Shown here: piece by piece, positions 1 through 11,858 of the stretch
Numbering within the stretch: position 1 is the stretch's first letter
Layout: the number at the start of each line of letters is the position of its first letter
The notes under the pieces: generated by a model
What the model saw: only the letters and a program-made list of their open reading frames with translations
What the model was told of the DNA's origin: nothing
The model's database searches: none
Translations under genes and position numbers: made by a program
From: Ahrensia sp.
GTDB taxonomy: Bacteria > Pseudomonadota > Alphaproteobacteria > Rhizobiales > Rhizobiaceae
Assembly (NCBI GenBank): GCA_003233475.1
Contig: QILU01000118.1
Span: 1-11,858 of the forward strand
Direction: 5' to 3'
DNA length: 11,858 nt

Positions 1-1476
1 CGGCCTCTTCTTCCTGCGGGTCGCTGTCATACAACAATGTCGCCCCGGCCCGTACTTCGGCAATTCCGTTTTTAATCCGCACCGTGCGCAATGTCAGCCC
101 GGTGTTCATATCTCCATTGAAACCCACCATGCCTACCGCACCACCATACCAGGCCCGCGGGCTCTTTTCATTTTCCTCAATAAACCGCATGGCCCAAAGC
201 TTAGGAGCGCCTGTTACAGTCACCGCCCACGCATGGGAAAGAAACGCGTCGAACGCGTCCATGTCTTCACGCAACCGCCCTTCAATATGATCCACCGTGT
301 GAATTAGCCGCGAGTACATTTCAATTTGCCGCCGTCCGATAACCTTAACCGACCCCGGTTCGCAAACCCGGCTTTTGTCGTTTCGGTCCACATCCGAACA
401 CATGGTAAGTTCGGATTCATCTTTCTTGGAATTGAGCAGTTTTAGAATTTGCTCACTGTCTTCAATCGGGTCCTGCCCCCGTTTGATGGTACCGGAAATC
501 GGGCAGGTTTCCACCCGCCTGCCCTGCACCCGTACAAACATTTCCGGGCTTGCTCCGACCAGATATTCACTCTCTCCTAAATTGATAAAAAATGAATAAG
601 GAGAAGGGTTTATTTGTTTTAGCTTATGTGAAATCTTGGAAGGAAGATTGATACAGCGCTCGGTAAACACCTGGCCTGGAACCACTTCAAACAAGTCCCC
701 TTTGACAAATTTTTTCTTGGCTTTTTCAACCAGTCGCGCATACTCCCCCGGTTGATGATCGCCGCGCCCGGGGTCAAATCCGGCCGGAACAAAAGGCACA
801 TCCTTACCGTCCCTTTCCAACCCCATTGTCGATTTTCCACCCACTGTAAATTCATATACCGTTCATGCCAGGCTTGCGCCGCATGGTGGTCAACAATGAG
901 AATTTCATCCGGCAGAAACATCACCATATCACGCTGATCATCCGCCCGTTTTTGCGTCAATTCTATTGCATCAAATTGGAAACAAAGGTCGTATCCAAAC
1001 GCACCATAAAGCGCCAGATTGGGGTCGGCGTCGCTGCGGAATAAATCAACAATTGCGCGTAGAACAGAAAACACCGTTGGCGCGCGTGACCGCATTTCCT
1101 CCTCCACCACACCTGTTGGCTCCTTCACCTGCAAGTGAGCCACCGTCTTTTTTTGGGAGAATTCAGCCACATGCTCATGGGATTTCAGCACATCACAAAT
1201 GGCTTCAAGTAGGATTTCACCGCGTTCATTATACGCCTCAATTGTCACCGCCCTACCCTTCGACGACACCCCAAGCGGCGGGTCGATCATCGCCGTATCC
1301 CAACGGGTATAGCGGCCCGGATATTCATAATTGGATGAAAATACTGCACCACGGCGCGTATCCAACCGGTCAATATACGATTTGACGGCATCCACATAAG
1401 GCGTTGCAAAACGCTCCCGGCGAACGCTTACCCCACCCTGGGTTTCATATTCAAACACGACATTATCAGTTTTCAT
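1..1476 (-). pseudogene. trpE: Anthranilate synthase component I (TrpE(G)-type), frameshifted, 3' end beyond window
   Basis: Anthranilate synthase makes anthranilate from chorismate and glutamine, the first step of tryptophan synthesis. The first frame (1476 to about 858) gives the N-terminal domain, including [20 protein letters not shown] and [18 protein letters not shown], typical of fused rhizobial TrpE(G). After HER the frame is lost and stops at 619. Reading on one frame over from about 856 gives an uninterrupted chorismate-binding domain to base 1, with [68 protein letters not shown] and [17 protein letters not shown]. One missing base restores a continuous protein of about 491 residues up to the edge; a TrpG (glutaminase) domain would lie outside. 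The ATG at 1476 is preferred over the one at 1503 because it follows a GGAG ribosome site 8 nt upstream and begins [12 protein letters not shown]. The gene is controlled by the upstream trpL attenuator. The frameshift may be a real mutation or an assembly error. Confidence 0.9.
854..860 (-). other. Frameshift site in trpE
   Basis: On the minus strand the reading frame gives His-Glu-Arg-Tyr and then an unrelated tail ([15 protein letters not shown]). One frame over, starting at the overlapping TAT, it gives [20 protein letters not shown], the expected continuation in TrpE. The two frames meet in the short repeat TATAT, so loss of one base (or gain of two) here explains the break. There is no homopolymer and no slippery heptamer, so programmed frameshifting is unlikely. 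Confidence 0.85.
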
Positions 1477-1508
1477 TCCAAATACTCCGCCACCCCAAAT
1501 CAAGACAT

Positions 1509-2011: not shown

Positions 2012-3124
2012 CTAGCGATCCAGTATATCCCGCGCTTCAACAAGGTTCGATCGCACCCTAAGGACATAAAACCCCATGGTGGCCAAATGGGTTGGCATAA
2101 TCCACCCGTCTTCTGCCCCATTGGAAATGACCAGGGGACGGATACTTAAAGCGGACTTCACCTGACTTTCCATTCTGGTCCACAAGGGCGCAAGCCCGCG
2201 GATTTTCACCACATCAGCAAAGTCCGCCCGCATGGCTTTCAACAGCCCCGAATAAGCGTAAAGCTGTCCATAGGCGAACCAAAATCGGTCATCGGCCCGC
2301 ATATCAAACCAACCGCTGTCAAAATTCTCAGATCGCTTCAACAATATGTCCGAAGTAGAACCAATATCGCTGGTGATACGGTCCAGCAACTGAATGAGAT
2401 TGTCCGCACGGGCATCAAAAACCGCATCGCATTTTTCCAACCGCCCGTTAAAATTATAAAGCGCCTTTTGTGCAGCGCGATAAAAGCTCGGTGTGGGTGT
2501 TTTAGGGCCAAACGGGTCAATCCCAAAATACCAGGTGTATTCATCAAACTGCAAATTCCCTCGCGCATCCTGCAGGCTTTTATCAACCTGGCTGGTTCCG
2601 CGAATACGCCCAAGACGGTCCACCAGTTCCACGCCGATACGCCGCGTTGCCTGATGAATTCCGCGCTGAAAACTCGCCTGGTTATCAAGAAACGGAGTGC
2701 GATCCCAACTCAGGCCGAAAAGCCCGGTTTTATAAAGCAGCATGGAGGAAATCCAACGGTTCTCATTAACAGTTTTATCAATCAAATCCGCGGTTACGTG
2801 CACAATCGCCGAGGGCTGGCATTTCTTTTCGTCCCCGTCCGACACGCCATCACCAGACAATGTTACCCGCGGAGGAAAATTGTAAGCCTGTGCATAATTC
2901 GGGTCAAAGCCCGCCCATCTCTGAGTTTGATAGATAAAGAACCCGTACCCGACCAACAGCGCCAGCAACAGCAGCCCGATAGGGCCCTTGATCAACCATC
3001 CGCGCCGCTTGTACCATTTTCCAAATGCCACAAACGGCCATAGAATTACAGCAATGACCCAGCCAACTCCGCGACCCATCCAATTGAATATCTTTACAAA
3101 AAACTCGATTACCGGATCAAGCAT
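2012..3124 (-). CDS. DUF2333 family membrane-anchored protein
   Basis: This 370-residue protein resembles the DUF2333 family of proteobacterial proteins of unknown function; the assignment is from memory of the family's look, especially the N-terminal membrane region followed by WAGFDPNYAQ. Two hydrophobic stretches (about residues 17-34 and 47-65) are separated by a basic KWYKRRGWLIK segment. The rest (about 70-370) is soluble, mostly helical, and ends SNLVEARDILDR. No catalytic motif is visible. The ATG at 3124 is preferred over a GTG at 3151 because AAGGA lies 8 nt upstream of it and the protein then begins MLDPVIEFF. It is the last gene of the cluster, 29 nt after the DUF6638-like gene. 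It may anchor the AAA+ machinery to the inner membrane, but that is inference from context. Confidence 0.75.
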   Translation of the reverse strand: MLDPVIEFFVKIFNWMGRGVGWVIAVILWPFVAFGKWYKRRGWLIKGPIGLLLLALLVGYGFFIYQTQRWAGFDPNYAQAYNFPPRVTLSGDGVSDGDEKKCQPSAIVHVTADLIDKTVNENRWISSMLLYKTGLFGLSWDRTPFLDNQASFQRGIHQATRRIGVELVDRLGRIRGTSQVDKSLQDARGNLQFDEYTWYFGIDPFGPKTPTPSFYRAAQKALYNFNGRLEKCDAVFDARADNLIQLLDRITSDIGSTSDILLKRSENFDSGWFDMRADDRFWFAYGQLYAYSGLLKAMRADFADVVKIRGLAPLWTRMESQVKSALSIRPLVISNGAEDGWIMPTHLATMGFYVLRVRSNLVEARDILDR

Positions 3125-3153
3125 ACTGGTTTTCCTTATACAAGATTTCACCC

Positions 3154-4440
3154 TCAGCCGTGCATACCATAGCGCAACCGCCGTAACTCTTCTTTGTTAT
3201 TGAGATAGTTATCACGAACCATCTCCACAACATGATCCTTCAATTTATCGCCCCATTTTTCATAATCAGCATAAAACGCCGGCTTGTTGAAGATAAAGCG
3301 CGATATAAAATCAAACGGCACATTATCTGAAATCAGCCGGTTCACCAACCACTGATCATCATGTCCAGGTTTGGCCCGCGAAAGTATAAAACGCCCGCGG
3401 GCATCAATTTCTTCAAGATCAACATTCGCCCAGGATTCGTATTCCCGCTGCGCCCAAAGAAGAAACGGCAAAGTGCCCTCTTCCTCAAGCATTCTGGTAT
3501 TCCTGTTCACCCACGCCTTTGCCCAGCGATTTGAATCGGGGTTGTGTTTTTTATTGGGCTCATGGTGAAAGGCCAACATGGTGATCAGCATTTCAATTCT
3601 GTGTTTCAAATAGCCGGAGCGTTCGATCCAGGAACCGCGCGGCTGATCCACCCGCCCGGTCTCCACCAGAAACCGATACACCAGTTCCGTGTCATTGCGA
3701 TCAATATAACTCACCTGCCAGGGTCGCGAACGGCGGAACCCCGGTGCTGACGGGTCACCAATCACGGTTGTTTGCGTCTCATCGATAAACACATAAACCC
3801 CGCCAAAATGGCTTGACCAGAATGTGTTGTGGCGAAACACAACTTCCTTCGGCACAAGATTATTGTTGCGAATATCCCCCGTTGCTTTTGAAAGCTCCAC
3901 CATCTTGTGCAACATTTCATCATCGCGCCAGGCATCCGGTTCCTTTTTCAACCTGTCCATAAGCAGGCGTAAATCCAGCGCCTGCTGCGCCAGATTTTTT
4001 CCCGTGAAAACTTTGAATTCCACCTGCTCAATCCTCAACAGGTCTTCAATATCACGGGCCTCCAGTATCGGGTCATCAATTTCCCCGTAGATCACATCTT
4101 TGATCGTGAGCGCATTGATGGCTTTCACATTGGCGGTAAAAAACTGGTGCATCAGCTTTCCGGTGTTGGAAAAAGCCGTGTTCACGCTGGGCAATTCAAA
4201 TTGCGTGGGAAAAAGAATAATGAACCGCCGGTTGATCCCGTGGGGATCAAGATATTGGGGATCATCTAATTCTTTGGCGATTTCCGGAGAGTATCCGGTC
4301 ATGTCAATCCGAAACGATTTAAGCTTGGTTTTTTTCAAACCAAACCCTTTTAGCGCCTGATTGTAGCGCTCAATCAAATGGGGTGCGGATACTGTTATCA
4401 TCCGTCCAAATATCAACTGCGATTCCTCAAGCCGCTTCAC
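3154..4440 (-). CDS. DUF6638 family protein of unknown function
   Basis: This 428-residue protein resembles what I recall of DUF6638, especially the N-terminal pattern GRMITVSAPHLIERYNQALK, IDMTGYSPEIAKELDDPQYL and INRRFIILFPTQFELP. No membrane segment or signal peptide is seen, so it is probably cytoplasmic. No catalytic motif is recognisable. The C-terminal half is rich in Trp, Arg and acidic residues (for example WAKAWVNRNTRMLEEEG). The start is a GTG at 4440: an in-frame TGA lies just upstream, AAGG precedes it closely, and the residues it adds (KRLEESQLIFGR) look like part of the conserved domain. An ATG at codon 14 is the alternative. The gene begins 33 nt after the AAA+ ATPase gene and is probably co-transcribed; a functional link with the ATPase is inferred. 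Confidence 0.7.
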   Translation of the reverse strand: MKRLEESQLIFGRMITVSAPHLIERYNQALKGFGLKKTKLKSFRIDMTGYSPEIAKELDDPQYLDPHGINRRFIILFPTQFELPSVNTAFSNTGKLMHQFFTANVKAINALTIKDVIYGEIDDPILEARDIEDLLRIEQVEFKVFTGKNLAQQALDLRLLMDRLKKEPDAWRDDEMLHKMVELSKATGDIRNNNLVPKEVVFRHNTFWSSHFGGVYVFIDETQTTVIGDPSAPGFRRSRPWQVSYIDRNDTELVYRFLVETGRVDQPRGSWIERSGYLKHRIEMLITMLAFHHEPNKKHNPDSNRWAKAWVNRNTRMLEEEGTLPFLLWAQREYESWANVDLEEIDARGRFILSRAKPGHDDQWLVNRLISDNVPFDFISRFIFNKPAFYADYEKWGDKLKDHVVEMVRDNYLNNKEELRRLRYGMHG

Positions 4441-4473
4441 TTGCCTTCACCCACGCTTTGATAGGGTCTGAAT

Positions 4474-6384
4474 TCACTCATTCCAGTGCCCGTCCGCTTT
4501 CATGGTTTTAATTTCGGCAACTGCCCGTTCCCGCTGCCGTTCGCGGCGAATAATTTGCTCCACCGCCGCCGCATCGCTCTTATCGGTGTAACGGAATTCT
4601 GAATCCGCATAGCGGTTGATCTCCTGCATAACCATGGCCATTGTGAACGGCCCGCGCAGTTCTTCGATCATGGCCTTTTTATCATCGTAACTTTTGTGCA
4701 TAAAAGCTTCCGGCGTTTCAAACCATTCGTCCGGCAGCTCAATATCCATGGCCCGCATTTTTACCGCATCGGTAATGTTCTTGATCGCCCGCCCGGTGAA
4801 ACGGGGCTCGGCTTTTTTAATCAAATGCAAATAAGTGCCCACATCCGCCATGGTTTTGGGCTCGCCATTGTCTTCCATAAACCGTTCATAAACTGCGACC
4901 AGGCCCTCTTCTTGCGGCTTTGAATATTTCTCATAGGCTTCACTGACTGCGCGCTCAATCACCTGCGCCTCGAACAAATCATGTTTGCCCAGTTTGATTT
5001 TGTGGTTTTTTCCGGCGAGCAAAACAAATATATCAATGTAATCGTCACGGGATTGGGGCCCATCCACCAACCAGCGCGCACCTGCCCTTTGGCGCAGGGC
5101 ATCGTCCACATTTTCCGGGTAGTTGGAAAACATACCGAAAGAACAATTGCCGCGCACAACCGTTTTTGCCCCGGCAAAACTTTCCATCAACACGGCGGTT
5201 ACTTCCTGTTGCCCGGCAGAAGCGCGATCATCCGAACGCTTGGCGGCAATCTGGTCAATATCATCCACCGTACCAAATCCGATTGTCTTAGTGTTCAACA
5301 CATTATCGATAAACTGCTTGCAGTTCTGGCCCGATTTCCCCTGATAGGATGAAATCTGATCAACCCCGAAATTTTCATACGTAAATCCATAATCGGCAAT
5401 CTGACAATAATCATTGATCATGCCCGCGATCATTTGAATAAGAATGGTTTTACCGGTGCCCGGCGCGCCATCACCAATGAACGTGAACAAAAACCCGCCC
5501 AGTTCCACAAACGGGTTCAACTGCCGATCAAAATCATAAGCCATCAGCATTTTAGACAGTTTGATCGCCTGATATTTGGCAATGTGATTGCCGATAATTT
5601 CGTTCGGCTGTTTGAATTGCATCACCAGCTTGGATCGTTTGGCCCCCGGCGACACGTCAAATCCGTTCAGCTCAAACCCATCGCTTTCCAGCCGTAAATG
5701 GGTTTGCTCGAACGAGCCAAGAGCGGTGAACCGCGCCTTGCGCTGCAGCAACTCGTCCATTGCCACCCGGGCCGCTTCGCGGGCACGCGCGCCCATAATC
5801 TTATCGTCCGGCGCATCTTGAATGGCGCTATCCAAACCGGCAACCAGGCCCTTTAACGCATCCTGTGGTGTGTCGAACAGAAAGTCCGGCTCCCCAACAT
5901 CGCTTGCCGGCTCCCCTTCTTCGGGCAGCATTTGCAGCAAATAAGCGGTGGCAGCAAAAGCGCTGATATAGGCGGAGGATTCCACCAGTGCCCGAAACCG
6001 CTCCGTGTCACTGGAGGACAAATCTCCGCTGACATTCTTTTTTGTCAACGCATCCAGCCCGGTTTGTTCACCAAACAAGTTGGCAACCGCCAGCGCCACA
6101 GCAACAGCGCGACGGGTTTTATAAACCAGCCCGTGTTGAGCCAAAGACAACATGGTATCATCCGCATTCACCGCGGAAACGCTTTTGGTGAACTCAATTT
6201 CGCTGGTGGATTTTGCACCACCCGAGGATACGGTTGAAACAAAACGGCGCCGGGTTCCCGCTAGCGCGGTTTTACTTTCCGCCCGCCCGGTGGTGATCCG
6301 CACAAAACGGGTAACCAGCGATTGTGCTACCGCAAGGTTTTTTTCAATCTCAGATTCTTTTAATGTGGTTAGGCCTACATCCAT
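4474..6384 (-). CDS. AAA+ ATPase, classical-clade-like
   Basis: The 636-residue protein uses ATP hydrolysis to remodel or move an unknown substrate. The Walker A motif GAPGTGKT is at residues 306-313 (Lys312). A Walker B-like VDDID is at 373-377. Sensor 1 is probably Asn421 in FGMFSNYP, and VDDALRQRAGAR (426-437) resembles the second region of homology with its arginine fingers. RFTGRAIKNI, about 110 residues further on, resembles a sensor 2 motif. The first 300 residues are a helical region rich in Ala, Ser and Leu that I do not recognise; there is no clear membrane segment or signal peptide. The ATG at 6384 follows GAGAGA about 9 nt upstream. Only 2 nt separate it from the preceding stop codon, so translational coupling is likely. 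It is the only visible motor of the cluster. It does not look like a ClpX, FtsH or MoxR protein. Confidence 0.9.
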   Translation of the reverse strand: MDVGLTTLKESEIEKNLAVAQSLVTRFVRITTGRAESKTALAGTRRRFVSTVSSGGAKSTSEIEFTKSVSAVNADDTMLSLAQHGLVYKTRRAVAVALAVANLFGEQTGLDALTKKNVSGDLSSSDTERFRALVESSAYISAFAATAYLLQMLPEEGEPASDVGEPDFLFDTPQDALKGLVAGLDSAIQDAPDDKIMGARAREAARVAMDELLQRKARFTALGSFEQTHLRLESDGFELNGFDVSPGAKRSKLVMQFKQPNEIIGNHIAKYQAIKLSKMLMAYDFDRQLNPFVELGGFLFTFIGDGAPGTGKTILIQMIAGMINDYCQIADYGFTYENFGVDQISSYQGKSGQNCKQFIDNVLNTKTIGFGTVDDIDQIAAKRSDDRASAGQQEVTAVLMESFAGAKTVVRGNCSFGMFSNYPENVDDALRQRAGARWLVDGPQSRDDYIDIFVLLAGKNHKIKLGKHDLFEAQVIERAVSEAYEKYSKPQEEGLVAVYERFMEDNGEPKTMADVGTYLHLIKKAEPRFTGRAIKNITDAVKMRAMDIELPDEWFETPEAFMHKSYDDKKAMIEELRGPFTMAMVMQEINRYADSEFRYTDKSDAAAVEQIIRRERQRERAVAEIKTMKADGHWNE

Positions 6385-6386
6385 GA

Positions 6387-7544
6387 TTAAATATCTCTCA
6401 ACACCTGCCCGCCGCTAACAACGTGCGTTTTATATCCGGAAAAAATACTGTCCCTTTCCCCGCTTGCAAATATCTGCTGGTAGGCTTCGTGGGGCACAAG
6501 CGCGTGGCGTTCATACCCACTCACCCCCTGGCGCACCGCTTCCAGATCATTCGTATCAAGATGGTAAGTTTGGCGCGACGGAGTGGAATTCCACAAGCCC
6601 CATTTAGCCGGGGCTTCGGAGATGGAGAACAAGACTTGCTGCGTCCAGGTCAGCATCCAAGCATTTTTTTCGCTTCTTACTTGTTCAAGAATTTTTTCAA
6701 CCACCTGTCCATGGCTGGTCATTTTGGCCGAATAAAACGGCCCCATGACAATACGCCTGATTTGGGTTGGATGAAGAGTTTCAAAATCCTTGTCCATATT
6801 GTCCGCGATGGTCATCAGGGTCAGGCTATAGCTGGAATTTTTCTCGCAAAAACTATCAAACTGATGCGCCAATTCCGGATTAAGCAATCCCTCAATCGGG
6901 AATGGAATATCAAGCCCCTTTTTTAATTCTTTACCGTCCAGCAGTTGTTTTAGCATTTTGGGGGAAGAATCTTCAATCACAGCAATATAGATCAACGGAA
7001 GATTGGCCGTACCATCAAAAGCACCCCAGTGAACAATAAAATACGGCCTCCCGGTCTTTGGATTTACTGACACCTTAACGGTTTTGGGCAAAATAAACGG
7101 CTGAAAGACATCGCCCTTTTGAACTTCCTCCAGATAAAGCCGTTTCGACAGGGCTTTTCTCACGGGTGCCGGAAATTTCTTTTTCAGGAGAATGTAGTCG
7201 ATCATTTCCTGGCGCAGCTCATCCGCTTCCGGCATGGCTGCCAGTTGTTTTTCCGCGTTTTTCGAATCCCGTTCCAAATCCAGCACATTTTGAAAGAGCG
7301 GGTAGCCGCTCTCCGCCCTGTTGATACGAAAACGGTCGGCGTATCCGGCACGGCTTTCCCACGCTTCAAAAGAATGGCGCAAGCGCTCAATATATCCGGT
7401 TAAAATACGCCCGGTCATCTCGTGTTGATAAAGCGGGGACGCCTCCTCATCACCAAGATAGACATCAAGACCGCTCAACGCCGAATCTATGGCACGGAAA
7501 TAGCGCTCAACCGAATTGGGTTTGGTTTTTTGTTTAACGGCCAC
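6387..7544 (-). CDS. Protein of unknown function in AAA+ cluster
   Basis: I do not recognise this 385-residue protein. It has no signal peptide or membrane segment. The N-terminal third is charged and probably helical (VERYFRAIDSALSGLDVYLG, LDLERDSKNAEKQLAAMP). The middle contains alternating hydrophobic residues suggesting a beta-rich core (KVSVNPKTGRPYFIVHWGAF, NLPLIYIAVIED), followed by mixed segments and WGLWNSTPSRQTYHLD near the C-terminus. No catalytic motif is evident. The start is taken as the GTG at 7544, with GAG 8 nt upstream; the start codon is less certain than the frame. It lies 19 nt after the coiled-coil gene and 2 nt before the ATPase gene, suggesting that it works with the ATPase, perhaps as adaptor or subunit. 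Confidence 0.8.
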   Translation of the reverse strand: MAVKQKTKPNSVERYFRAIDSALSGLDVYLGDEEASPLYQHEMTGRILTGYIERLRHSFEAWESRAGYADRFRINRAESGYPLFQNVLDLERDSKNAEKQLAAMPEADELRQEMIDYILLKKKFPAPVRKALSKRLYLEEVQKGDVFQPFILPKTVKVSVNPKTGRPYFIVHWGAFDGTANLPLIYIAVIEDSSPKMLKQLLDGKELKKGLDIPFPIEGLLNPELAHQFDSFCEKNSSYSLTLMTIADNMDKDFETLHPTQIRRIVMGPFYSAKMTSHGQVVEKILEQVRSEKNAWMLTWTQQVLFSISEAPAKWGLWNSTPSRQTYHLDTNDLEAVRQGVSGYERHALVPHEAYQQIFASGERDSIFSGYKTHVVSGGQVLRDI

Positions 7545-7563
7545 GGACAGTACTCGCGACCAC

Positions 7564-8652
7564 TTACGCCGGTTTCAAATAATCTGCTTTGTTGTGTTTT
7601 TCCAATACCTCTGCAAACCGGCGGGCAAAGGCTTCATCGGCCAACTGTTTGCGCCGTTGAATATCCTTGGTGGAAACCATGTTTTTCTCATGCATTTCCA
7701 ACAGATCACCAATATGGCTTTGGGCGGCGGCACCAATTCCGGCCATGGTGCTTTCAGCCGCCGTATCAACCTTATTACCAAGGGTGTTGATCTTGTGGGC
7801 CACATCCTGTTGGGCTGCGGTTTTCAACGAATCTTCCAGCGCCTTATACAAAACAATGCGCTGCTCGGTATCAATCGTCAGTTTGTTAATCAGCGTCGCT
7901 TGCGCGGCTTTTTGATTGTTCAATGAATCAACAAAGGTTTGGAACATGGAAGTATAGCGCTCCAATGTCTGGCTTTCCGCCAGAAGCTCCTGCTCTTTGG
8001 CCTGTTTGGCATTGTATTCGGTTGCCAGTTTAGAGCGTTCACCCTCAAGGTTTGCGCGTTTTTTCTGATTGGTGGAGACTGAAATCTGATTTTCCAGATC
8101 AAGCAACATGGGGTTCAGTTCTTCAATACGCTTTTGGGTTTCCTCCAGCGTGTTGATTGTTGATTTACGCCGTTCAATAACTTGCCGCAGGCTGGCTTCT
8201 GAAGTTTCATAGCGTTCCTCAAGAACTTTTTCCTGGTCCTGGAGAATACCGGTAATCGTATTGGATTTTGTCAGCAACTCCTGCAAGTTTCCGGAAAGCG
8301 ACATGTTGCGAACCCGTTCGGTGCGCATGCGTTGGGCTTTTTGCTTAGAGAAAATACCAATGAATTTTTCATAAGTCGTATAACTTTTCATCGATTCAAA
8401 TTCAGCGCCAAATACGTTTGTCGCATCTTCCAACCCGATTATAAGGTCAGCAATATTGCCTTCCATCAGCTTTTGCTGTCGCAAGACGTCGTCTATTCGA
8501 GCATTTTCAATATCAAAATCCGCATCACCAATGGTTTTGGCCTTGGCCAGTTTATCCATAACCACCCCGCTTTGTTCAAGCTTGGAGCGCATTTCATCAA
8601 CGGTGGTTCTGGTTTTTTCGATCTCGTGATCAAATTTTGACATGTCGGCCAT
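7564..8652 (-). CDS. Coiled-coil protein, possibly distantly TelA-like
   Basis: The 362-residue protein is almost entirely predicted helix. Heptad-like coiled-coil stretches are clear at about residues 5-40 and 135-235, rich in Glu, Lys, Gln and Leu. The C-terminal part, about 265-352 (IVLYKALEDSLKTAAQQDVA, IGDLLEMHEKNMVSTKDIQR, then ADEAFARRFAEVLEKH), faintly resembles the end of TelA/KlaA toxic-anion-resistance proteins in length, helical layout and the E-x-G/N-x-V-x-x-x-x-L/I turn; this is a weak, by-eye similarity. No membrane segment or signal peptide is present. The ATG at 8652 (MADMSKFDHEIEK) is preferred over an upstream start at 8679 because GAGAGAGG lies 8 nt before it. It is the first gene of the cluster, downstream of a dyad that may be an operator. 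A scaffold role for the AAA+ system is inferred. Confidence 0.85.
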   Translation of the reverse strand: MADMSKFDHEIEKTRTTVDEMRSKLEQSGVVMDKLAKAKTIGDADFDIENARIDDVLRQQKLMEGNIADLIIGLEDATNVFGAEFESMKSYTTYEKFIGIFSKQKAQRMRTERVRNMSLSGNLQELLTKSNTITGILQDQEKVLEERYETSEASLRQVIERRKSTINTLEETQKRIEELNPMLLDLENQISVSTNQKKRANLEGERSKLATEYNAKQAKEQELLAESQTLERYTSMFQTFVDSLNNQKAAQATLINKLTIDTEQRIVLYKALEDSLKTAAQQDVAHKINTLGNKVDTAAESTMAGIGAAAQSHIGDLLEMHEKNMVSTKDIQRRKQLADEAFARRFAEVLEKHNKADYLKPA

Positions 8653-8766: not shown

Positions 8767-10911
8767 TTAAACGCCGATTTCACGAACGAGGATTTTGAGA
8801 ACCTGGCGTTTTACCCGGGTGTAAAAGCTTTCCGGCGCGCCTGTTATTACCGACACCCCCCGCACAACCTTTTGCGGTACCGCCACCCGGTCGCTTTTTG
8901 CCGTAGCCATTGCCACCGCGTAAAACGCTTCAAGGGGTCGTAATGCCTCGTTTTGCGTTTCCTCAATGGCAATGCTCCCACCGTAGGGAAGCGCCAGATA
9001 GGGTTCATCCAGAGATTCAGAACTGGCTTCAGCCACATTCACCACATGAATTTTTACAATCGGCAATTCCGGATTATCCGGAATAAATTTAGCCACCGCT
9101 CCGGATTTGAACCGAAACACGCTCTGCTCGCTCACATAGCCTTTTATGCGGGGTGAATTGCGGGTTTGCAAAACCGCCATCGGGGTTCTTGAATTAACCC
9201 ACAAATCGGCATGAAGTTCGGGATCCAGATCGGCAACAACACCGGCAAACCGGGCGCGCACGGTAAGCTTTTGAGTAACCCTTTTAAGGCCCTCAATTTC
9301 TTCCACCACTTCTTTCAACTCATTGGTCAAAACAATCAGGGATGCCCGGTCTTCAACATCTGATCCAATTCTATCGATCCGCGTTTCCAGCAGGGACTTG
9401 CGTTCTTTTGCCAATACAAAATCCCGCATCAGTTTTGGCGAACTGAGTTGAAACAACACCTGCTCTTTTTTTACTGAATCCCCATTGGCAACCTTGATTG
9501 CGGTAACTTTCGCCGCAAAGGGGGCAAAGATTGCCTGTTCCTGTTCGGCAGTCATTAATGCCGGGATGGTGATTTTTGTGGACCAGGGAATAACAGCCAA
9601 AACCCCAAAACCGGCCACAATACCTGCGGATATCCAAAACCGTAATGAAAACATGATTTTTCCTTTTATTGACCACCAGTGCTTCATTTCGCGCCCTATT
9701 GGCATCAAAATGAACCAGACAATTTCAATGACAAACAACAATATGCCGATGAGTTTAATAAAAAATGTGTAGACCAGCAGGGCAATCCCCAGGAACAAAA
9801 AGAACCGGTAAATCCAGGTTGCCCATGCATGAACAATAATTATGCGTCGCAACTTTGGTGAAAGTTCTTCCGGCGCCGGTTCCCCCAGCTTAAAAAACAA
9901 TTCCCGCATGCGCCAGCGCGCCATATCAAAACCACGGTTTTGCATGTTGTGAAAACCCAGCATATCGGACAGAATATAATACCCGTCAAACCGCATCAGC
10001 GGGTTCAAATTCACCACCAGTGAAGTGATCCACGACGTGGTGGCAATAGCAAAGAAAGAAAGTCGCAACCCGCCCTCTGGAAGAAACACCCAGATCAATG
10101 TGGCGATGGACGCAAGAGCAAGTTCCGTAAACACCCCTGCCCCGTCAATCATCAGCCGTTTGCGCCGTGAGTTCAGCCGCCATGCACCGCTTGTATCGGT
10201 ATAAAGAACCGGCATCAGCACCATAAATGCAATGCCAATCGTCGGCACCCGCAGGCCATAGCGCACACTCATATAAGAATGGCCAAGCTCATGCAGAGAT
10301 TTCACAATCACCAGACTGATCCCGTAAAGCGCCGCCCCCTGCCAGGAAAGCATGAACTGAAACGTACCGCTGAATTGCTCCCATTGGCGCGAAACAAGAT
10401 ACAGCCCCGTAATCCCGATCAGTACATAAATCCACACCGCTGTGCGCGTGAACAAGGGCGAAACAAACGGCCAGGTCGCCTGCAAAAATCTATCCGGACG
10501 AAACAACGGTATCCGAAAAAACAAATAGGAATGCATGGCCCTGGAGAACCATGATTTTTTGGCCCCCGCTTCTTTCTCTGCCATGGTTTTATAATCGGCA
10601 CCGGGAATATCGCGCACCAAAGCATTGGATATCAGAAAGTGGATCGCCTCCCCCACTTCATCTTCTGTCACAATGCGGCCAAATTCCACCTGCACCCGGC
10701 GCACCAGTTTTTCCACCGTGCCCACCCGCCATAACATAAGCATGTCGAGCAGCTCCCGGCCAATTTCAAAATAGCGATTGGAAACGGCGTCATAAATGAC
10801 CCAGGCAGGCGCACCATTGCTTTGGGCGGCCGTTGGAACAATCTCCAGATCATCCCGCAATATGGGAAGCGGAGCGCTCTCTTTTTCTTCCTGTTTTAAT
10901 AGCCCGTCCAT
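8767..10911 (-). CDS. PqqD-like / M50 metalloprotease / HlyD adaptor fusion
   Basis: This 714-residue inner-membrane protein has three parts. Residues about 15-105 look like a PqqD-type winged-helix domain (PILRDDLEIVP, WVIYDAVSNRYFEIG, AIHFLISNALVRD), a fold that often binds peptides. Residues about 155-445 are a polytopic M50 (site-2-protease-like) domain: HELGH (207-211) gives two zinc ligands and the catalytic Glu208, and NPLMRFDGYY supplies the third ligand, Asp309. At least six membrane segments surround these motifs. Residues about 446-714 resemble a HlyD-type periplasmic adaptor: a lipoyl-like half motif (APFAAKVTAIKVANGDSVKK), a helical hairpin (500-548) and the returning half (VRARFAGVVADLD). 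All active-site residues are present, so it may be catalytic. The gene starts inside the end of the upstream HlyD gene (16-nt overlap), with a weak GGTGG ribosome site, suggesting translational coupling. Such fusions are usually linked to peptide or protein export; the substrate is unknown. Confidence 0.9.
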   Translation of the reverse strand: MDGLLKQEEKESAPLPILRDDLEIVPTAAQSNGAPAWVIYDAVSNRYFEIGRELLDMLMLWRVGTVEKLVRRVQVEFGRIVTEDEVGEAIHFLISNALVRDIPGADYKTMAEKEAGAKKSWFSRAMHSYLFFRIPLFRPDRFLQATWPFVSPLFTRTAVWIYVLIGITGLYLVSRQWEQFSGTFQFMLSWQGAALYGISLVIVKSLHELGHSYMSVRYGLRVPTIGIAFMVLMPVLYTDTSGAWRLNSRRKRLMIDGAGVFTELALASIATLIWVFLPEGGLRLSFFAIATTSWITSLVVNLNPLMRFDGYYILSDMLGFHNMQNRGFDMARWRMRELFFKLGEPAPEELSPKLRRIIIVHAWATWIYRFFLFLGIALLVYTFFIKLIGILLFVIEIVWFILMPIGREMKHWWSIKGKIMFSLRFWISAGIVAGFGVLAVIPWSTKITIPALMTAEQEQAIFAPFAAKVTAIKVANGDSVKKEQVLFQLSSPKLMRDFVLAKERKSLLETRIDRIGSDVEDRASLIVLTNELKEVVEEIEGLKRVTQKLTVRARFAGVVADLDPELHADLWVNSRTPMAVLQTRNSPRIKGYVSEQSVFRFKSGAVAKFIPDNPELPIVKIHVVNVAEASSESLDEPYLALPYGGSIAIEETQNEALRPLEAFYAVAMATAKSDRVAVPQKVVRGVSVITGAPESFYTRVKRQVLKILVREIGV

Positions 10912-11858
10912 TGCCGAACCACCGAAAGAGGTTTGCGAAACAGATAATATGCCAGGGAGACTTCTTCGCCAAATATTTTGGCCGTACCGCGCAATCCAAT
11001 GCGGGGCACTTTGCTATTCTCATCCGTCAGAAATCTTGCCCGCACACGATAACTCAAAATACCTTCACCATCGACCTGGGCATTAAAACTTGCGCTGATC
11101 AACACAGCCTCGATCGATTGCAGCGGGGCACTTTCGAGGTAGAGTTCAACCCGTGCGCCTTTGTTCAAAACAATCGCATCAGAAATCGGCAGATTAACCG
11201 TTACCTCAACTTTGGAAGGATCCGCAATGCGCATAATGCGTTCACCGGTAGAAACCGGGCGGCCTGTCCAGGTATCCTTGTTGGCGAATATAACCAGTCC
11301 CGAACGGCCAGCTTTTACCGCGGTGTTTTTCAACAACTCACGGGCATAATCATATTCACCCGCCTTCAACTGAAGTTCGGATTTCGATATGGACAACTCA
11401 CGCTTGGCGCGGGGGTCTGAAAAAGAAGTACGCAGGTTTTGCTGATAACGGGCTTCAGCCACCCCGACCGCCTGGCCGGCAAGCTTCACCCGGTTACGCA
11501 AATCCGTATCGTTATAATTGAAAAGAAGATCGCCTTTTTTAACTTTGGTATTAGGGTCAATCGCAATTTTTTCGACGGTGCCATCAATCGGAGCCGCCAC
11601 GATAAACGCATTCAAAGGCGTAACTTCCGCAGGCGCAAGCACAGACAAAGGCAGCGGAATAAAGGCCGCACCAAACATTCCAACCAGAGCAATCGACCAA
11701 AGAAGCGATTTGGAACGCAGCTTGCGTTTTGCTCTTTTAGGCCCGCTCAACGCTTCCCATGAGTGGGAAAATGTTTCGCACAATCGGGCAGCCGCCACCA
11801 GGCTCTTTTCATCCCATTCACTCTCGCGGGTGAACATCATATTGGCAAACACCGTTCC
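10896..11858 (-). CDS. HlyD-family membrane-fusion adaptor, 5' end beyond window
   Basis: The frame is open to the right edge, so the start lies outside; the in-window GTG at 11852 is probably internal. Counting from it, residues 1-35 are a charged cytoplasmic stretch that could be the end of a larger N-terminal domain. A membrane segment follows at about 49-70, then a lipoyl-like half motif (APIDGTVEKIAIDPNTKVKK, 87-106), a helical hairpin (about 115-172), the second half motif (VKAGRSGLVIFANKDTWTGR) and a beta-barrel-like end (209-300). This is the layout of periplasmic adaptors that connect inner-membrane transporters to outer-membrane channels. The gene overlaps the M50-HlyD fusion, so the two adaptors probably form one complex. 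No ABC transporter or TolC-like channel is visible in the window. Confidence 0.88.
   Translation of the reverse strand, partial: GTVFANMMFTRESEWDEKSLVAAARLCETFSHSWEALSGPKRAKRKLRSKSLLWSIALVGMFGAAFIPLPLSVLAPAEVTPLNAFIVAAPIDGTVEKIAIDPNTKVKKGDLLFNYNDTDLRNRVKLAGQAVGVAEARYQQNLRTSFSDPRAKRELSISKSELQLKAGEYDYARELLKNTAVKAGRSGLVIFANKDTWTGRPVSTGERIMRIADPSKVEVTVNLPISDAIVLNKGARVELYLESAPLQSIEAVLISASFNAQVDGEGILSYRVRARFLTDENSKVPRIGLRGTAKIFGEEVSLAYYLFRKPLSVVRQWTGY

What the first reader, a model, noticed from the sequence alone, without database searches (positions are those of the whole stretch)
2012..8652. Five-gene AAA+ cluster as a candidate undescribed envelope-linked machine
Five minus-strand genes lie with gaps of 2-33 nt: coiled-coil protein, unknown protein, AAA+ ATPase, DUF6638-like protein and membrane-anchored DUF2333-like protein. 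One motor, one coiled-coil scaffold and one membrane anchor suggest a multi-protein ATP-driven complex. Four of the five have no assigned function that I know of. Motifs and spacing are seen; family names come from memory; the joint function is inference.
Basis: partly seen in the sequence, partly recalled or inferred. Interest (0 to 1): 0.72.

Follow-up and report, generated by a model that had tools for sequence, protein, structure and literature searches.

The report
Conserved undescribed AAA+ motor gene set
Four neighbouring bacterial genes of unknown function, one of them an ATP-driven motor, travel together in the same order in quite different bacteria and probably build one machine that pulls on a coiled-coil partner, usually beside a membrane protein.

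Summary
Five co-directional genes lie at 2012-8652; none has a known function.

The conserved unit is four genes: A1 (coiled coil), A2 (no family), AAA+ and DUF6638. Of 68 loci examined by profiles, 56 hold all four, always on one strand in this order, two near-identical Vibrio loci included; 8 are cut near contig ends and 4 are reduced. In 299 Pseudomonadota genomes AAA+ and DUF6638 each occur in the same 20, A1 in those plus four.

Another alphaproteobacterial clade has DUF1523 there; the Vibrio loci have neither.

The four reduced genomes keep A1 and DUF2333. Their A1 lacks part or most of a segment that is complete in 61 of 61 loci with the AAA+ gene: a candidate motor contact.

The AAA+ keeps Walker A, a pore-loop aromatic residue and arginine fingers, but has Asp-Asp at Walker B. 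Best guess: a motor that threads or dismantles an A1 assembly, working like Vps4/ESCRT-III. Kinship of A1 with PspA or TelA was not shown. Function is untested.

The parts
7564..8652 (-). A1: coiled-coil protein, 362 aa, first gene of the core; no known family; its C-terminal half is the best conserved part
   Evidence: ORF; ATG at 8652; no family; 38% identity to the Vibrio protein; conservation by position
7759..7836 (-). A1 residues 273-298, candidate contact for the motor or its companions (coordinates computed from the residue numbers)
   Evidence: no gap in 61 of 61 loci with the AAA+ gene, 14-21 of 26 positions missing in the 4 reduced loci; L156 and L157, cut at contig ends, keep it
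6387..7544 (-). A2: 385 aa, no known family; helical N-terminal part and a beta-rich C-terminal part with weak T-fold-like resemblance
4474..6384 (-). AAA+ ATPase, 636 aa: unknown N-terminal region (about 1-260) and one AAA module (Walker A 304-313, pore loop 346-354, Walker B 372-378, arginine fingers about 431-437)
3154..4440 (-). DUF6638 protein (PF20343), 428 aa; confident model without a solved structural relative found
2012..3124 (-). DUF2333 protein (PF10095), two predicted membrane segments near the N-terminus; clade-specific accessory, candidate inner-membrane tether

Best explanation
The locus encodes one cytoplasmic ATP-driven protein-remodelling machine. Core: a classic-type AAA+ motor (hexamer inferred), a long coiled-coil protein A1, and two companions, A2 and DUF6638. 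Most likely A1 is the substrate or scaffold: it assembles into an oligomer or filament, the motor engages the conserved C-terminal segment of A1 (about residues 273-298) and pulls A1 through its pore with the Tyr-Gln-Gly pore loop, taking the assembly apart or reshaping it. A2 and DUF6638 act as adaptors or regulators. In Alphaproteobacteria the last gene of the operon ties the machine to the inner membrane: DUF2333 in one clade, DUF1523 (usually with a small membrane protein) in the other. Shown: the conserved unit, the co-occurrence, the motor motifs, the partner swap, and the A1 deletion where the motor is missing. Inferred: physical complex, hexamer, threading, A1 as substrate, membrane tether. 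Odds by step: conserved functional unit about 0.95; physical complex about 0.8; A1 as what the motor acts on about 0.45; membrane tether in Alphaproteobacteria about 0.5.
For: Same order in 56 of 68 loci, the other 12 being 8 cut near contig ends and 4 reduced. AAA+ and DUF6638 in the same 20 of 299 genomes, A1 in those plus 4. Vibrio core in the same order, AAA+ 38% identical. Walker A in 182 of 182 aligned sequences and pore loop aromatic-Gln-Gly in the 173 of 182 that the listing shows; the pore loop aligns with YVG of an i-AAA protease and YLG of Rpt2. A1 segment complete in 61 of 61 loci with the motor, 14-21 of 26 positions missing in 4 of 4 reduced loci. A1 dN/dS 0.01-0.10 in five pairs with the motor against 0.19-0.33 in three pairs without it, DUF2333 steady at 0.10 in the latter. 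Membrane partner differs between the two alphaproteobacterial clades of the AAA+ tree.
Against: No experiment. No complex was predicted. Walker B has Asp-Asp instead of Asp-Glu, so hydrolysis could be slow or altered. A1 shows no significant kinship with a known filament former. Three of the four reduced loci share one deletion, so the correlation is one or two events; L156, whose genome gave no AAA+ match, keeps the segment, though its contig ends inside A1. The Vibrio loci have no membrane protein next to the core by hydropathy of the two upstream genes, so a membrane role is not general.
Confidence: 0.4

Rival explanations
1. The AAA+ protein is an assembly or repair chaperone for an enzyme formed or served by A2 and DUF6638, in the way that CbbX-type and MoxR-type AAA+ proteins serve their enzymes (recalled); A1 is only a tether or adaptor.
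Confidence: 0.25
2. The core is a sensor or signalling complex: A2 binds a small ligand (for example a purine or pterin), DUF6638 and A1 pass the state to the membrane protein, and the AAA+ protein is a slow switch rather than a threading motor.
For: Asp-Asp at Walker B in 181 of 181 sequences with letters there; weak T-fold resemblance of A2; a ChvI-bound DNA fragment inside SMc02733, which gene order places in this operon.
Against: The pore-loop motif is kept, which a pure switch would not need; the T-fold signal is weak; the tag SMc02733 was not looked up.
Confidence: 0.15
3. The set is an anti-phage defence system or part of a mobile element.
For: PADLOC models IetA and TRIP13 match the AAA module weakly (E 1e-4 at best); the Vibrio copies lie on unnamed replicons of about 0.9 Mb.
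Against: Those matches cover only the ATPase fold. No relative of the Vibrio AAA+ in 50,697 phage records; no relative confirmed in viral contigs. One match per genome for all but one of the core-bearing genomes (the exception, G402, is one gene split over two contigs), and strong purifying selection.
Confidence: 0.07
4. The genes are only neighbours: five separately acting core genes that share a transcript.
For: Insertions between AAA+ and DUF6638 are tolerated; DUF2333 also occurs alone.
Against: Order kept from Hyphomicrobiales to Vibrio although the flanking genes differ; AAA+ and DUF6638 present or absent together in 299 of 299 genomes.
Confidence: 0.05

Closest known systems
Vps4 with ESCRT-III (Snf7), and bacterial PspA operons with classical AAA+ ATPases
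   Same: A single-module classic AAA+ protein encoded beside a long coiled-coil protein, with a membrane protein in many loci; PMC11237479 section 18 (read) describes PspA and Snf7 genes next to AAA+ genes
   Different: A1 has no PspA_IM30 or Snf7 match in Pfam and only weak profile similarity to PspA (27-36%, 1% for Vibrio A1). The core also has A2 and DUF6638. That section describes a two-AAA-domain partner of PspA and archaeal-type Vps4; the supplement was not read.
i-AAA protease (Yme1/FtsH group) and proteasomal Rpt ATPases
   Same: Nearest solved sequences to the AAA module: 5ubv E 6e-4, Rpt2 chains E 0.006 and weaker; pore-loop aromatic and Walker A kept
   Different: Catalytic Glu of Walker B replaced by Asp; no protease family found by Pfam in the protein; unrelated N-terminal region
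TelA (PF05816), another coiled-coil family of the same genomes
   Same: Length and coiled-coil character
   Different: TelA proper is encoded elsewhere in 7 of 19 genomes tested; profile comparison with A1 gives under 1%
IetAS and CBASS TRIP13 defence ATPases
   Same: AAA module
   Different: Match covers only the ATPase fold; no protease or HORMA-type partner recognised by Pfam or PADLOC among the neighbours in the window
T-fold (tunnelling-fold) enzymes such as urate oxidase and dihydroneopterin aldolase (class name recalled)
   Same: A2 residues about 160-347 give these enzymes in 40 of 50 listed rows; element order strand-strand-helix-helix-strand-strand

Membership tests
Classic AAA group of AAA+ ATPases | Pfam AAA match over the curated cut-off | tested here: met
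   44.4 bits against a cut-off of 21.2
Classic AAA group of AAA+ ATPases | Walker A P-loop | tested here: met
   GDGxPGTGKT in 182 of 182 aligned sequences
Classic AAA group of AAA+ ATPases | Walker B with catalytic glutamate (hhhhDE) | tested here: not met
   Asp-Asp in 181 of 181 sequences with letters there; aligned with Asp-Glu of 5ubv and Rpt2
Classic AAA group of AAA+ ATPases | Sensor-1 / arginine-finger region | tested here: met
   R431, R433 and R437 invariant in the 14 rows; the commonest form DDALRQRAGAR in 151 of 182; assignment as arginine fingers is by position, recalled
ESCRT-III / PspA superfamily (for A1) | PspA_IM30 or Snf7 sequence match | tested here: not met
   No such family at E up to 1 in Pfam
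ESCRT-III / PspA superfamily (for A1) | Profile-level kinship | tested here: inconclusive
   hhalign 27%, 36% over 121 columns for alpha A1 and 1% for Vibrio A1; control alpha A1 against Vibrio A1 100%, against TelA 0.6%
ESCRT-III / PspA superfamily (for A1) | Filament formation on membranes, disassembly by the AAA+ partner | not testable with these tools
   needs protein work
TelA | Profile match to TelA proteins | tested here: not met
   (0.1-0.6%)
T-fold superfamily (for A2) | Fold match to T-fold domains | tested here: inconclusive
T-fold superfamily (for A2) | Conserved ligand-anchoring acidic residue and barrel oligomer | not tested
   model coordinates were not at hand
DUF6638 (PF20343) | Pfam match over cut-off | tested here: met
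   227.8 bits, cut-off 27; Vibrio protein 199.1 bits
DUF2333 (PF10095) | Pfam match over cut-off | tested here: met
   69.4 bits, cut-off 22

The most novel reading that the evidence does not exclude
A bacterial machine that works like ESCRT-III/Vps4 but is built from families not recognisably ESCRT-III: A1 forms a membrane-side filament held by interchangeable inner-membrane proteins (DUF2333 or DUF1523), a dedicated AAA+ motor strips A1 subunits from it through a docking segment at A1 273-298, and A2, possibly a ligand-binding T-fold protein, together with DUF6638 decides when this happens.
Probability: 0.12. Interest if true: 0.85.

Novelty: new variant of a known kind. Interest (0 to 1): 0.6.

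Why it matters
Rhizobia, Rhodobacteraceae and some Vibrio share a multi-gene ATP-driven machine for which the searches made here found no function in print. It is under strong purifying selection and present in genetically tractable species such as Sinorhizobium meliloti, so its role can be tested directly. The natural loss series (full set; A1 with DUF2333 only) and the membrane-partner swap give ready-made predictions about which parts touch.

Tried and rejected
TelA identity for A1: rejected by profile comparison. In some searches one of seven TelA rows (L113) was a wrong antisense frame; one search repeats the test without it, with the same result.

PspA identity for A1: not established (27-36%, 1% for Vibrio A1 alone). 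A search of the A1 profile against 12 PspA proteins with filters off gave weak matches (best E 3e-4 in that tiny set, 9.5 bits with 7.9 bits of composition bias).

PspA beside DUF2333 looked a strong lead after two cases but held in only 3 of 40 fetched DUF2333 loci (40 of the 55 genomes with DUF2333 and no core gene). In two of the three, genes looking like PspC, a small membrane protein and a copper chaperone lie between (read by eye). Kept as a hint only.

M50 and HlyD genes upstream: seen by tblastn in 3 of 33 loci, the nearest ones, so not part of the unit.

Defence or phage origin: no support.

Papers: what was seen is passages of PMC5256989, PMC8343143, PMC3568095, PMC3687685 and PMC11237479, and section 18 of the last (108). 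The other papers were seen as listings only.
Full report
WHAT IS THERE. On the minus strand the window carries an HlyD-like protein (10896-11858), a protein with M50-peptidase-like and HlyD-like parts (8767-10911), A1 (7564-8652), A2 (6387-7544), an AAA+ ATPase (4474-6384), DUF6638 (3154-4440), DUF2333 (2012 to 3124 or 3151), and a trpE split over two frames further on. The named nearest relatives come from Rhizobiaceae and other Hyphomicrobiales. No whole genome is held for the window.

FAMILIES. Pfam places three of the five genes: DUF2333, DUF6638 and AAA. NCBIfam, PHROGs and PADLOC add only weak matches. A paper search finds DUF2333 in one paper, as an unstudied gene in an orphan hcp locus of Pseudomonas fluorescens (PMC5256989, passages seen), and DUF6638 in none. 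A search for the Pfam accessions of DUF2333, DUF6638 and DUF1523 found no further paper.

THE CONSERVED UNIT. A scan of genome contigs with the AAA+ protein returned 33 loci; in each, the genes held by the contig are in the order A1-A2-AAA-DUF6638, and DUF2333 follows in every non-Rhodobacteraceae locus where DUF6638 was found. I then examined 68 loci with profiles (window, L001-L033, L100-L109, L118-L121, L152-L171). Result: 38 A1-A2-AAA-DUF6638-DUF2333 (one of them, L024, with two DUF2333 matches); 15 with DUF1523 instead of DUF2333, 12 of these with a small membrane protein before it and 4 with another one between AAA+ and DUF6638; 3 with the four core genes alone (two near-identical Vibrio loci and one Rhizobium leguminosarum plasmid); 8 incomplete at or near contig ends (L018, L027, L030, L031, L156, L157 cut; L033 and L022 ending about 0.1 and 0.65 kb after the AAA+ gene), all consistent with the order; and 4 with A1 and DUF2333 only. 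All matches of a locus lie on one strand. Insertions occur between AAA+ and DUF6638, for instance a gene that looks like a phospholipase D on the other strand in L004 (by eye) and an IS with a DUF559 gene in S. meliloti, so the unit survives interruption.

CO-OCCURRENCE. In 299 Pseudomonadota genomes, DUF6638 occurs in 20 and the AAA+ protein in 20, the same 20. A1 occurs in those 20 and in four more. A2 was not surveyed on its own at this level. In 150 genomes of one order, partly the same genomes, A1 occurs in 28 and AAA+ in 25; of the three without AAA+, two are of the reduced type and one (G421) has A1 running into a contig end. DUF6638 and DUF2333 occur in none of 14 control genomes.

BEYOND ALPHAPROTEOBACTERIA. 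Four Vibrio records of about 0.9 Mb match both the AAA+ protein (38% identity over 94%) and DUF6638. In the two opened, V. vulnificus and V. parahaemolyticus, the order is A1, A2, AAA+, DUF6638, then mfd. A protein search from the Vibrio AAA+ lists relatives named Vibrio splendidus, V. owensii, Neptuniibacter, Spartinivicinus and Psychromonas (the best 120 of 3479 shown, candidates capped; one row is labelled Mycolicibacterium, which I take for a mislabelled or contaminant record). Their neighbourhoods could not be seen. Only one phylum was surveyed by genome. A tree of 52 AAA+ proteins separates a group of 16, in which all six rows whose organism I could name are gammaproteobacterial, from an alpha group of 36, which splits into a DUF1523-type clade (16 rows; partner seen in 13) and a DUF2333-type clade (20 rows; partner seen in 19, absent in the R. 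leguminosarum stretch), each fork at 100/99 (partners; root by midpoint only). On that rooting the membrane partner changed about once.

THE MEMBRANE PART. Hydropathy finds no membrane segment in A1, A2, AAA+ or DUF6638, here or in Vibrio; DUF2333 has two, DUF1523 two, the small proteins two and three. DUF2333 occurs in 68 of 299 genomes: in 9 of the 20 core-bearing genomes, in none of the other 11, in all four reduced genomes, and in 55 without a core gene. It is an independent family that one clade has recruited.

THE REDUCED LOCI. In G256, G046, G110 and G268 the locus keeps A1 and DUF2333 side by side, and AAA+ and DUF6638 were not found in the genome; absence of A2 was tested only within the 17-20 kb stretches. 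A1 there is divergent (28-29% identity in the two aligned) but still clearly A1 by profile (99.9%). The segment EDSLKTAAQQDVAHKINTLGNKVDTA (residues 273-298 of the 362-aa A1) has no gap in 61 of 61 loci with the AAA+ gene; 21, 21, 21 and 14 of its 26 positions are missing in the four reduced loci. Two loci cut at contig ends, L156 and L157, keep it although no AAA+ gene is visible in them; the genome of L157 has the AAA+ gene on another contig, in that of L156 (G421) it was not found. The segment lies in the best conserved stretch of A1 across alpha and gamma sequences. dN/dS of A1 is 0.01-0.10 in five pairs with the motor and 0.19-0.33 in three pairs without it, while DUF2333 in the latter stays at 0.10 (the window/L001 pair has dS above 2 and is rough). 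The simplest reading is that this segment serves the lost partners and that the rest of A1 still serves DUF2333. Three of the four reduced loci share the same deletion, so this is one or two events, not four.

THE MOTOR. Against solved structures the profile matches the ATPase domain of an i-AAA protease (5ubv, E 6e-4) and Rpt2 (E 0.006 and weaker); there Walker B reads IDELD or IDEID, and YVG or YLG stands where this family has YQG. A threading motor is plausible, with an unusual Asp at the catalytic position. That Bcs1 also has Asp there is recalled.

MECHANISM. Best-supported reading: one cytoplasmic machine in which the AAA+ motor acts on A1 through its C-terminal conserved segment, with A2 and DUF6638 as companions and an exchangeable membrane protein as anchor in Alphaproteobacteria. 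Shown here: unit, motifs, swap, correlated deletion. Inferred: complex, hexamer, threading, polymer, tether. It would work like AAA+ disassembly systems such as Vps4 with ESCRT-III. Membership there is not shown: A1 has no Pfam match to PspA or Snf7 and only weak profile similarity to PspA (27-36%; 1% for Vibrio A1), while the same method gives 100% between alpha and Vibrio A1 and under 1% for TelA. The PspA-AAA+ operons described in section 18 of PMC11237479 concern other AAA+ proteins as far as that section tells; its supplement was not read.

REGULATION HINT. A DNA fragment picked up as bound by the S. meliloti regulator ChvI lies inside SMc02733 (PMC3687685, passages seen). By gene order from shmR = SMc02726 this tag should fall within the operon, perhaps on A2. 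The tag itself was not looked up.

Noticed in passing
window 2-1503, minus strand, around 810-850: trpE (TrpE-clade3) is split over two frames: the model matches only its first 199 positions in the ORF 619-1503 and the reading goes on in another frame in the ORF 2-844. Frameshift in the organism or an assembly error.
   Followed up: partly
window 8767-11858, minus strand: A pair with M50-peptidase-like and HlyD-like parts stands upstream of A1; by tblastn it is there in the three nearest loci (L001-L003) and in none of the other 30. Its best NCBIfam hit, below cut-off, is a daptide-maturation metalloprotease.
   Followed up: partly
L196 6474-8905, L197 6303-9510, L199 3770-7449: In 3 of 40 fetched DUF2333 loci without the core, DUF2333 lies within about 2 kb of a pspA gene on the same strand, with genes that look like pspC in between (by eye).
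   Followed up: partly
L120 10100-11845: In S. meliloti Ak57 a DUF559 endonuclease-like gene and an IS4-type transposase sit between AAA+ and DUF6638.
   Followed up: no
L028 2666-5098: In a Rhodobacteraceae contig three genes in a row that look like peptide deformylases and one like methionyl-tRNA formyltransferase stand upstream of the core (by eye, not searched).
   Followed up: no
L118, L119: The Vibrio copies lie on unnamed, non-mobilizable replicons of about 0.9 Mb that hold many unannotated genes.
   Followed up: no
P0345: One AAA+ relative is labelled Mycolicibacterium aubagnense although it is 41% identical to Vibrio like the rhizobial ones; probably contamination or a label error.
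   Followed up: no
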